From positions 1-64,000 of the IMG/VR virus record IMGVR_UViG_3300031759_000004: 64,000 nt of DNA; one strand, given 5' to 3'. Source of the DNA: a virus. A program made the position numbers and the translations under genes. Shown here one piece after another: positions 11,715 to 55,238 of this stretch (positions are counted from its first letter, which is position 1; every line of letters starts with the position of its first letter). The notes beneath the pieces are model-generated. The model was given only the letters and a program-made list of their open reading frames with translations. It had not been told where the DNA came from and made no database searches.

Positions 11715-11791
11715 TGGCGCTCCAGGCCGGGATCGAACCGGCGACATGACCGCTTTAGAGGCGGCTCCTTTAACCACTCAGGCACTGGAGC
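11715..11791 (-). tRNA. tRNA with CUA anticodon (amber suppressor type)
   Basis: Full cloverleaf on the minus strand: acceptor GCTCCAG/CTGGAGC (7 of 7 pairs), a 3-bp D stem, anticodon stem GCCGC/GCGGT, loop CTCTAAA, 6-nt variable loop, T arm GCCGG-TTCGATC-CCGGC, discriminator G and encoded CCA. Loop positions 34-36 read CUA (complement of 11756-11758), which would decode UAG. Many genes here end in TAG, so the whole genome is not recoded. The amino acid cannot be read from sequence. Confidence 0.88.
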
Positions 11792-52585: not shown

Positions 52586-52597
52586 GCCGGAAAAATT

Positions 52598-52640
52598 CTT
52601 AAAATAAAATGTTGACTGGAATTCAAACTTCGTCTACGCT
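52598..52640 (+). promoter_or_regulatory. Sigma70-like promoter of the structured RNA / Y RNA / Ro60 unit
   Basis: AT tract TTCTTAAAATAAAATG, -35 TTGACT (52612-52617), 17-bp spacer, -10 TACGCT (52635-52640). Transcription should begin near 52647. No start codon follows at the leaderless distance, which fits a non-coding transcript. Confidence 0.75.
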
Positions 52641-52646
52641 TTCTTC

Positions 52647-52998
52647 AGTTCTTTGAACCGGGCCGCAGTGAATCGGTTACCATGAAACGAACAACCAGCA
52701 AATCGCTGGGTGCGACAACCGGCATAACCCGTTAATTTGTCGCAGCGCTCGTCCAGGGCAACCTGGTAGGTAATGCCCAGTCAGCCAACCGCCGAAGCGA
52801 CGGTAATTGCAGGCGGAAATGGGCTGGGCTAAGCTATCAGAGCTTCGTGAGAAGTTTTGAGAGGGTAAAGACCCGAACCTCCGATTTGCAATTTTTGTCC
52901 GGTCTCAGGGGATTTTTAATGGGCTGGTGGTTGACGTGATGGCCGAAAGCCAGCGTCGCCAACCTTCGCAGTCGCAAGGCTGCCCAGCCCACCATGAG
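52647..52998 (+). ncRNA. Unidentified structured RNA, about 350 nt
   Basis: No credible gene. Many stems are visible: CCAGC/GCTGG (52696-52710), TGCGACA/TGTCGCA (52711-52744), CCAGG-GCAA-CCTGG (52753-52766), CTTC-GTGA-GAAG (52843-52854), TGGC-CGAAA-GCCA, and a long-range TGGGCTGGGC/GCCCAGCCCA pairing (about 52820 with 52982). GNRA-type tetraloops recur. It does not match the RNase P RNA, tmRNA or group I core motifs I looked for. It ends at the tRNA, so tRNA processing may set its 3' end. A 17-codon frame (ATG 52682) also lies here but is not convincing. Confidence 0.5.
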
Positions 52999-53077: not shown

Positions 53078-53138
53078 GTCGGGCCGAACGTCGAGGGTTA
53101 TCTTTGAATGAACACCCCTCGGCAATTACTTGTCCGAC
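53078..53138 (+). ncRNA. Y RNA 1 (Ro60-binding)
   Basis: 61 nt. Terminal stem GTCGGGC/GTCCGAC, then on the 5' strand CGAA and on the 3' strand ACTT: the Ro60 recognition element known from Y RNAs (5' GGNCCGA, 3' ACUUGNCC with a bulged C). An inner stem CGAGGG/CCCTCG carries the loop beginning TTATC. A TTTTAATTTT tail follows and may help termination or 3' processing. Confidence 0.82.
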
Positions 53139-53156
53139 TTTTAATTTTGACATTTT

Positions 53157-53217
53157 ATCGGGCCGAAGACCCAGGGTTATCTTTCCAAAATCACCCTGAG
53201 TCAAACACTTGTCCGAT
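53157..53217 (+). ncRNA. Y RNA 2 (Ro60-binding)
   Basis: 61 nt, same length as Y RNA 1. Terminal stem ATCGGGC/GTCCGAT, with the outer pair changed on both sides relative to Y RNA 1 (compensatory). CGAA/ACTT element conserved; inner stem CAGGGT/ACCCTG with loop starting TATC. Followed by TTTTAATTTT. Confidence 0.82.
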
Positions 53218-53227
53218 TTTTAATTTT

Positions 53228-53365
53228 AGCGGGCCGAAGCTGTTTGGTTATCACCCTAGCGCCTGTCGAGGTTCAAATCCTCGCCGAGGCTTTACGCCTC
53301 GGTGGTGTAACGGTAGCACAGCGCTCTCGGCGTAAGCCGGTCTCCGAACGCGACCCTTGCCCGCT
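53228..53365 (+). ncRNA. Y RNA 3, YrlA-type with tRNA-like module
   Basis: 138 nt. Terminal stem AGCGGGC/GCCCGCT with CGAA and CTT of the Ro60 element. Between them lies a circularly permuted tRNA fold (53254-53327): anticodon stem AGCGC/GCGCT, T arm CGAGG-TTCAAAT-CCTCG, acceptor stem CCGAGGC/GCCTCGG (7 of 7) closed by the loop TTTAC, and D arm GTGT-AACGGTA-GCAC with GG. A CGGC-GTAA-GCCG hairpin follows (53328-53339). This is the design of bacterial YrlA RNAs, whose tRNA-like domain mimics tRNA. The D arm resembles tRNA-Gly. Confidence 0.85.
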
Positions 53366-53444: not shown

Positions 53445-53467
53445 TCTGGGCCGACAACTTGCCCGGA
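53445..53467 (+). ncRNA. Minimal Ro60-binding hairpin
   Basis: TCTGGGC-CGA-CA-ACTT-GCCCGGA: 23 nt with the terminal stem, bulged C and CGA/ACTT element of the three Y RNAs, but almost no loop. It lies 74 bp before the Ro60 start codon. Ro60 bound here could sense its own level. Confidence 0.55.
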
Positions 53468-53540: not shown

Positions 53541-55238
53541 ATGGCGAAGATCAATGTTTCCCAGTTCGATACGCGGTCGGCCAAGCGCTCGCTCAAGCTG
53601 CCGGTCACTGAACCCCTCCCCGACCGTGGCCAGGTGCTCAACAGCACCGGCGGCTACACCTGGGCGGTAGACGACTGGAAGCGCCTGGAGCGCTTCCTGG
53701 TCCTGGGTTCGGAGGGCGGCACCTATTACGTAGACGAGCCGGACCTGACCAAGCAGAACCACGACGGCGTGCTGGCCTGTCTGAAGGCGGATGCCCGCCG
53801 GACGATCCAGACGGTGGTAGACATCAGCGTCCAGGGCCGGGCCTACCGCAACGAACCCGCGCTGTTTGTGCTCGCCCTGGCGGCGGCCTCGGACTGCCCG
53901 GAGACGCGCGCCCTGGCGCTGGAGGCGCTGCCGCAGGTGGCGCGTATCGGCACGCACCTGTACCACTTCATGGCGTACGTGACCGCCTTTCGCGGCACGG
54001 GCCGTGGCGTGCGCAACGCGATTGGCCGGTGGTTTACGTCCAAGGCTCCGGAAGAGCTGGCCCACCAGGTGGTCAAGTACCAGCAGCGCGACGGCTGGTC
54101 TGCTCGCGACATGCTGCGGCTGGCCCACCCCAAGGCGTATAATGATGCCCAGGAGGCGGTCTTCCGCTGGGTGATCGGCGGCCTGGCGGCCACCGGCCCC
54201 CGGTCCGTACAGCGCAAGCTGGCAGGCGTTAAGACCTACCCGGACGTGCGGCAACACCTGCCGGTGTTCATCGAGGCGTTCGAGCAGGCTAAGTTCGCGG
54301 ACGAAGCCGAGCTGGTCAAGCTGATCGCGGCGCACAAGCTGCCCCGCGAGGCCGTGCCGACGGACAAGCTTAATTCGGTGGCCGTATGGGAGGTCCTGCT
54401 CCAGAACATGCCGCTGACGGCCATGATTCGGAACCTGGGCAAGATGACGGCGGTGGGCCTGGTGCGCCCGCTGAGCCAGGCGGCCAAGCTGGTGACCGAG
54501 CGGCTCACCAACGCGGGCTACTTGCGCAAGTCGCGGATTCACCCGATGCAGGTCCTGGTGGCCTCCCGCGTCTACGGCGGCAACGCCGGACTGCGCGGCA
54601 AGCTGGCCTGGACGGCGGTGCCGTCGATCCTGTCGGCGCTGGACGAAGCGTTTTACGCGACGTTCCCGAACGTCCATCCCTGCGGCAAGCCGCTGCTGAT
54701 TGGCCTGGACGTTTCTGGCTCCATGAACAGCTCCATGGCCGGTGCCACGGCGCTGCGCGCCTGCGAGGCCACGGCGGCCCTGGCCCTGGTTCACGCCAGC
54801 GTCGAGCCGGAGTGTCACATCTTCGGCTTCGCGGACACGTTCCGGGAGCTGGGCATTCGCAAGGGCATGACCTTGGAGACGGCCATGCGGCAGGCCGCCG
54901 ACATGAACTTCGGTTCCACGGACATCAGCCTGTGCTTCGAGTACGCGCGGAAGGCCAAGCTCAAGGTGGGCGGCTTTATCTGCATGACGGATAACGAAGT
55001 CAACTGTGGCCGTCACCCGGCGCTGGCGCTGCGCGACTATCGGGCGAACTTCGTGCCGGATGCCCGCAGCGTCATGCTGGCGACGACGTCGACGCCGTTT
55101 ACGTGCAACGATCCGGAGGACGCGTACGGCTTGGACGTGGTGGGTTTCGACTCGTCGGTCCCGTCGGTCGTGGCGGACTTCATCCGGGGCGAAGCCGCCT
55201 CGGTGGTAGGAGACGCGGAAGTATACAGCCAGGACTAA
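53541..55238 (+). CDS. rsr: Ro60-family protein (TROVE domain plus vWA), Rsr
   Basis: 565 aa. The TROVE module has RFLVLGSEGGTYYVDEPDL near 51-69, ALFVLALAAA near 113, RIGTHLYHFMAYV near 137 and GRGVRNAIGRWF near 156. The C-terminal vWA domain has an intact MIDAS: DVSGSMNSS near 392, STDIS near 461 and MTDNE near 483. Ro60/Rsr is a ring-shaped protein of HEAT-like repeats that binds Y RNAs on its outer surface and misfolded RNA ends in its cavity; in bacteria it works with exoribonucleases and in RNA repair. The Y RNA array directly upstream is its expected partner. Length matches family (about 530-560). Confidence 0.93.
   Translation: MAKINVSQFDTRSAKRSLKLPVTEPLPDRGQVLNSTGGYTWAVDDWKRLERFLVLGSEGGTYYVDEPDLTKQNHDGVLACLKADARRTIQTVVDISVQGRAYRNEPALFVLALAAASDCPETRALALEALPQVARIGTHLYHFMAYVTAFRGTGRGVRNAIGRWFTSKAPEELAHQVVKYQQRDGWSARDMLRLAHPKAYNDAQEAVFRWVIGGLAATGPRSVQRKLAGVKTYPDVRQHLPVFIEAFEQAKFADEAELVKLIAAHKLPREAVPTDKLNSVAVWEVLLQNMPLTAMIRNLGKMTAVGLVRPLSQAAKLVTERLTNAGYLRKSRIHPMQVLVASRVYGGNAGLRGKLAWTAVPSILSALDEAFYATFPNVHPCGKPLLIGLDVSGSMNSSMAGATALRACEATAALALVHASVEPECHIFGFADTFRELGIRKGMTLETAMRQAADMNFGSTDISLCFEYARKAKLKVGGFICMTDNEVNCGRHPALALRDYRANFVPDARSVMLATTSTPFTCNDPEDAYGLDVVGFDSSVPSVVADFIRGEAASVVGDAEVYSQD

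What the first reader, a model, noticed from the sequence alone, without database searches (positions are those of the whole stretch)
53254..53327. Circularly permuted tRNA-Gly-like module within Y RNA 3
The 3' half of a tRNA (anticodon 3' strand, variable loop, T arm, acceptor 3' strand) lies upstream of the 5' half, joined by TTTAC. Acceptor (7/7), T (5/5), anticodon (5/5) and D (4/4) stems all pair; U8, G18G19 and TTCAAAT are in place. YrlA RNAs are known tRNA mimics, but this copy is so tRNA-like that RNase P and RNase Z could cut at TTTAC and release a real acceptor end.
Basis: partly seen in the sequence, partly recalled or inferred. Interest (0 to 1): 0.8.

Follow-up and report, generated by a model that had tools for sequence, protein, structure and literature searches.

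The report
Phage Y RNA with tRNA-like module
Next to a phage gene for the Ro60 RNA-binding protein lies a small RNA, one part of which folds like a tRNA with its two halves in swapped order; this is the normal build of a known RNA family (YrlA), so the find is real but ordinary, and nothing here shows that it is cut into a real tRNA end.

Summary
At 53258-53325, acceptor, T, D and anticodon helices pair 7/7, 5/5, 4/4 and 5/5 in permuted order; no simulated window came close. It is the tRNA-like module of the third of three Y RNAs (53078-53142, 53156-53222, 53229-53365) just upstream of a phage Ro60 gene (53541-55238). It is not exceptional. Around some 160 Ro60 loci of phages and bacteria I found 78 distinct modules by T and D arm only; 68 pair at least 6 of 7 'acceptor' positions (5.6 expected), with compensatory changes at every position. 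One lies inside an Rfam YrlA hit. A model built without the window finds it at E = 2e-9, but scores it below its closest relatives. The 'Gly' label fails: there is no anticodon loop, and the D arm is Gln/Trp-like. RNase P/RNase Z processing is untested; as a family function it is disfavoured: 18 of 68 loops are UUCG or GNRA caps, an extra pair seals the stem in 40 of 50 longer loops, and the discriminator base is random. Five relatives have NCCA at the loop start; the window copy does not. Most likely role: a Ro60-bound tether whose tRNA-like end recruits a partner such as PNPase.

The parts
53229..53365 (+). Y RNA 3: Ro60-binding stem plus permuted tRNA-like module plus GNRA hairpin
   Evidence: shared Ro60-stem motif with Y1/Y2; module; orthologue in L083/L084
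53258..53325 (+). permuted tRNA-like module
   Evidence: 42 bits, E 1.8e-9 with a model built without it
53258..53262 (+). 'anticodon' stem 3' strand AGCGC
53267..53283 (+). T arm CGAGG-TTCAAAT-CCTCG
53284..53290 (+). 'acceptor' 3' strand CCGAGGC
53291..53295 (+). loop TTTAC closing the 'acceptor' stem (no CCA, U at the discriminator place)
   Evidence: sequence
53296..53302 (+). 'acceptor' 5' strand GCCTCGG
53305..53319 (+). D arm GTGT-AACGGTA-GCAC
53321..53325 (+). 'anticodon' stem 5' strand GCGCT; no anticodon loop, continues into the GNRA hairpin and Ro60 stem
   Evidence: sequence
53328..53339 (+). hairpin CGGC-GTAA-GCCG, also present in L083 (GGCGAAAGCC)
53078..53142 (+). Y RNA 1, stem only (no tRNA module)
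   Evidence: fold z -3.0; weak match to nematode stem-bulge RNA model RF01656
53156..53222 (+). Y RNA 2, stem only
   Evidence: fold z -2.7; weak RF01656 match
53541..55238 (+). Ro60 (Rsr) orthologue, TROVE + vWA domains, 565 aa
   Evidence: Pfam PF05731 and PF25045 over cut-off; phmmer E 2e-107 to 1yvp, E 7e-98 to 2nvo Rsr

Best explanation
It is an ordinary YrlA-type Y RNA of a phage that carries its own Ro60. Shown by sequence: the outer stem carries the Ro60-stem motif (CGGGCCGAA ... GGTTATC ... CTTG.CCG) shared with the two stem-only Y RNAs beside it, and its far end carries a tRNA-like module in permuted order, in which the 'anticodon' end is joined to the Ro60 stem and the 'acceptor' end is closed by a short loop. 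Inferred from the studied bacterial cases: Ro60 holds the RNA by the stem, while the tRNA-like elbow (D, T and acceptor arms, probably with D and pseudouridine added by host enzymes) protrudes as an effector handle that tethers a partner, such as the PNPase exonuclease, and gates the Ro60 ring. Permutation is the necessary result of fusing a tRNA shape to another stem through its anticodon end; it needs no cleavage at the acceptor loop.
For: Ro60 gene 216 nt downstream. Motif shared by Y1-Y3, only three copies in the 129-kb contig. Same arrangement in the closest relatives L083/L084 (63% Ro60 identity), with different but pairing acceptor sequences, and in L085 (57%). 78 distinct modules in 58 loci; 68 pair >=6/7 at the acceptor although selected only by T and D arms, against 5.6 on average and at most 12 with shuffled partners; all 7 positions change on both sides, helix 93% paired, whole-structure covariation 0.741 vs 0.200 shuffled and <=0.197 slid. 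Unconstrained RNAalifold recovers the T, acceptor and D arms. A module in Lysobacter (L071 5584-5657) lies inside an Rfam RF02553 YrlA hit. Published summary: YrlA has a basal Rsr-binding stem and a domain resembling the D, T and acceptor arms, modified by DusA and TruB, binding PNPase (PMC8394870).
Against: No RNA or protein data for this phage. The Rfam YrlA model does not hit the window even at E 10, though it also misses most other loci searched. The single-sequence MFE is not the full cloverleaf. Whether the partner is PNPase is unknown; no RtcB was found in the contig.
Confidence: 0.82

Rival explanations
1. RNase P cuts before G53296 and RNase Z after the acceptor 3' strand, removing TTTAC and giving a nicked Y RNA with a real, CCA-tailed acceptor end.
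For: 7-bp acceptor stacked on a 5-bp T stem with G1:C72; algal permuted pre-tRNAs lose intervening sequences at this place, probably by RNase P and tRNase Z, with known lengths of 1-74 nt (PMC3978253). NCCA stands at the loop start in 5 of 68 relatives.
Against: Across the family 18/68 loops are UUCG or GNRA caps; an 8th pair forms in 40/50 longer loops against 20.1 expected, and pairing of leader with the 3' end is an RNase P anti-determinant (PMC9433436); the discriminator base is random (C20 T18 G16 A14) while tRNAs in the same loci have A142 G85 T29 C20. The window copy has U there and no CCA. Salmonella YrlA fragments were not detected (PMC7790460; tested for another nuclease).
Confidence: 0.06
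2. The module is a decoy that occupies host enzymes acting on tRNA (for example anti-phage tRNA nucleases), rather than a tether.
For: Phage-borne; a competitive-inhibitor role for the YrlA tRNA-like domain was suggested for Salmonella (PMC7790460). The elbow is intact.
Against: No anticodon loop, the usual target of such nucleases; the same module is common next to Ro60 in bacterial contigs (33 of 68 modules), not only phages.
Confidence: 0.1
3. A junction of two tandem tRNA genes or a decayed tRNA array that only looks permuted.
For: Tandem tRNA junctions do give weak permuted scores (L085 7035-7107, 28.5 bits).
Against: ARAGORN and Rfam find no tRNA within Y3; the strands are embedded between the two Ro60-stem strands; the orthologue in L083 keeps the arrangement.
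Confidence: 0.02

Closest known systems
YrlA-type bacterial and phage Y RNAs (Chen et al. 2014; Rfam RF02553)
   Same: Ro60/Rsr gene adjacent, basal Ro60-binding stem, tRNA-like module with D, T and acceptor arms in permuted order; phage YrlA already reported (PMC7765460 citing Sim and Wolin 2018)
   Different: D arm GTGT...GCAC rather than the usual GCTC...GAGC (59 of 68 modules); not detected by the Rfam model; two stem-only Y RNAs in the same cluster
Circularly permuted tRNA genes of red/green algae and archaea
   Same: 3' half upstream of 5' half with a short intervening sequence at the acceptor end
   Different: No anticodon; the outer ends lie in a Ro60-binding stem instead of a splice junction; no evidence of a mature tRNA
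Vertebrate Y RNAs and nematode stem-bulge RNAs (RF01656)
   Same: Y1 and Y2 have the GGCCGAA ... GGTTATC ... ACTTG stem pattern; weak model match; a Y RNA of relative L015 passes the gathering score
   Different: No tRNA-like module in those families

Membership tests
YrlA-type Y RNA | lies beside a Ro60/Rsr gene | tested here: met
   TROVE + vWA protein at 53541-55238
YrlA-type Y RNA | 5' and 3' ends pair into a Ro60-binding stem with conserved motif | tested here: met
   (sequence and fold only)
YrlA-type Y RNA | tRNA-like domain with D, T and acceptor arms | tested here: met
YrlA-type Y RNA | binds Ro60 and a partner such as PNPase; carries D and pseudouridine | not testable with these tools
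   needs biochemistry
Rfam RF02553 (YrlA covariance model) | score at or above gathering | tested here: not met
   no hit; the model is narrow, it hit only L071 among 17 loci
Circularly permuted tRNA gene | an anticodon loop, so that a mature decoding tRNA can result | tested here: not met
   after GCGCT the sequence runs into a GNRA hairpin and the Ro60 stem
Circularly permuted tRNA gene | BHB splice junction and circular intermediate | not tested
   no BHB scan was made; no RNA data
Functional tRNA acceptor end | purine-rich discriminator and CCA (encoded or added) | tested here: inconclusive
   U at the discriminator place, no encoded CCA in the window; family-wide discriminator random; CCA addition not testable

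The most novel reading that the evidence does not exclude
In a subset of phage and bacterial Y RNAs, those with NCCA right after the acceptor 3' strand (L008 2219-2291, L015 2079-2149 and 2381-2451, L100 3449-3522, L154 3679-3752; L010 2766-2835 looks the same), the loop is really cut, giving a Ro60-bound permuted tRNA with a CCA end that could be aminoacylated or bound by EF-Tu or other CCA-reading proteins. The window copy would be at best a weak case because it lacks CCA.
Probability: 0.05. Interest if true: 0.7.

Novelty: new member of a known kind. Interest (0 to 1): 0.22.

Why it matters
It shows that the permuted, full-length acceptor-like helix is a general, covarying feature of YrlA RNAs in phages and bacteria and not a peculiarity of one copy. 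The loop statistics turn the cleavage idea into a question that can be tested on the few relatives with CCA.

Tried and rejected
Rfam at gathering and at E 10: no YrlA hit in the window. Direct DNA search in phages: only tandem tRNA junctions in Streptomyces phages. The first viral scan with the single protein found nothing; with an alignment 418 stretches were found and 80 kept. The rotated module searched as DNA: longest match a tRNA-Gln at 73%, E 2, not significant; plasmids gave nothing useful. A first anchored scan missed modules because of a greedy pattern and was redone; the leader-hairpin scan had the same fault and was redone. Key papers (Chen 2014, Wang 2018, Sim and Wolin 2018) are not held, so whether they already discuss permutation or RNase P is unknown to me. 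RtcB in the contig: none. Promoter and terminator scan: nothing on the plus strand.

Full report
What was claimed and what is there. Every helix is present; exact limits are 53258-53325. With halves swapped back and any anticodon loop inserted, ARAGORN calls a tRNA. A scanner for permuted tRNAs scores it 22.5, while 400 simulated windows of the same dinucleotide make-up reach at most 19.

Where it sits. The window is part of a 129,045-base virus record. The gene downstream (53541-55238) is a Ro60/Rsr orthologue with TROVE and vWA domains. Upstream are three RNAs with the same outer-stem motif, CGGGCCGAA ... GGTTATC ... CTTG.CCG, whose 5' half is found three times in the whole record, all here. 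Y1 and Y2 are plain stems; Y3 carries the module. The Y1/Y2 stems weakly match the nematode stem-bulge RNA model, a relative of Y RNAs.

Is it special? I collected Ro60 loci from phage records, 68 from bacterial genomes and 80 viral contigs. To avoid circularity I picked modules by T arm and D arm only and asked afterwards whether the 'acceptor' strands pair. Of 78 distinct modules in 58 loci, 68 pair at 6 or 7 of 7 positions (52 at 7); shuffled partners give 5.6 on average and 12 at most. Each position shows 5-6 standard pair types. On a MAFFT alignment of 57 modules the four-helix structure pairs in 88.8% of cells against 61% shuffled and at most 48% slid, covariation 0.741 against 0.200. 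T and D arms are 100% by selection; the acceptor's 93% is not selected for; the anticodon stem is 62.5%, mainly its first pairs. RNAalifold without constraint finds T, acceptor and D arms. A covariance model built without the window and without L083-L085 finds the window copy at 42 bits, E 1.8e-9, but L083/L084 at 68.6 and L085 at 59.2. Thirteen other modules near Ro60 also have all four helices complete. So the window copy is a typical, even slightly atypical, member.

Link to the known family. In a Lysobacter genome the module L071 5584-5657 (acceptor 7/7, loop GAATCTGT) lies within an Rfam YrlA hit, L071 5551-5683, 77.6 bits. The published description of YrlA is a basal Rsr-binding stem and a domain mimicking D, T and acceptor arms, modified by DusA and TruB, that binds PNPase (PMC8394870). 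Phage YrlA has been reported (PMC7765460), and Ro/TROVE proteins in jumbo phages are noted with a tRNA-like partner in cellular organisms (PMC7824862). The original papers are not held; that they describe YrlA tRNA mimicry in detail is recalled, not checked.

Gly? The anticodon loop does not exist, since that end is joined to the Ro60 stem, so an isotype has no meaning. By similarity to 315 tRNAs in the loci, Trp and Gln have the highest mean scores among well-sampled isotypes and Gly is near the bottom; the best single match was a tRNA-Thr. The D arm TGGTGTAACGGTAGCACA resembles the tRNA-Gln of relative L083. Only 2 of 68 modules have a GTGT D stem.

Is the acceptor end opened? Against it as a family function: 7 UUCG and 11 GNRA-type caps among 68 loops; an eighth pair in 40 of 50 loops of 5 nt or more, against 20.1 shuffled, maximum 30, where a true tRNA has an unpaired discriminator; discriminator letters evenly spread, unlike tRNAs in the same loci. 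Leader/3'-end pairing slows RNase P (PMC9433436), although the threshold there was two pairs and loss of RCCA did not stop cleavage, so this is not decisive. For it: algal permuted tRNAs are opened at this place, and spacers of 1-74 nt are known (PMC3978253); 5 of 68 modules have NCCA at the loop start, about five times the chance number for CCA at that place (my estimate, 1/64 per loop). The window copy has no eighth pair, but also no CCA and a U at the discriminator place. I put processing of this copy at about 6%.

Mechanism. Inferred from the bacterial cases: Ro60 binds the stem and the tRNA-like end is a handle for a partner, with PNPase the best studied. Permutation follows from attaching a tRNA shape through its anticodon end. 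Not shown here: expression, Ro60 binding, partner, modifications.

Noticed in passing
L085 3548-3730 (also L166, L167, L175, L177 near tRNA clusters): A second Y RNA in L085 carries, directly after GGTTATC, the 20-mer ATAACGGTCCTAAGGTAGCG, a highly conserved 23S rRNA stretch (helix 69/70, core of the I-CeuI site, from memory; L173 holds it in what looks like a real 23S gene). The same 20-mer stands near tRNA clusters in other phage contigs. It could be an rRNA-mimic element.
   Followed up: partly
window 53446-53466: Hairpin TGGG-CCGACAACTT-GCCCG in the Ro60 leader, about 90 nt before the start codon; L083/L084 have CAGG-CCGCCAACTT-GCCTG at a similar place. It resembles a miniature Ro60-binding stem, perhaps for autoregulation.
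   Followed up: partly
window 52590-52998: Non-coding, structured stretch (52905-52998 folds at z -3.2, with GGGCTGG/CCAGCCC-ACCA ends). Relatives L083 and L085 have a tmRNA upstream of their Y RNAs; none is detected here.
   Followed up: no
window 11715-11791, minus strand: tRNA with anticodon CUA (ARAGORN: Pyl), possibly a phage suppressor tRNA reading UAG.
   Followed up: no
L159 3121-3930: A row of about seven Y RNAs, stem-only and tRNA-module types mixed, upstream of one Ro60 gene.
   Followed up: no
L008 2219-2291, L010 2766-2835, L015 2079-2149 and 2381-2451, L154 3679-3752, L116 about 3650: Permuted modules whose acceptor 3' strand is followed by ACCA; hints at origin from tandem tRNA genes with encoded CCA, or at real end processing.
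   Followed up: partly
L066, L068, L071, L073, L080: Permuted modules also accompany very divergent TROVE proteins (about 21-24% identity), placed about 340-400 nt downstream of the matched part of the gene.
   Followed up: no
L014 2944-4518 (Microbacterium phage SM23): The Ro60 region is annotated as two separate ORFs, so the gene looks broken or misassembled.
   Followed up: no
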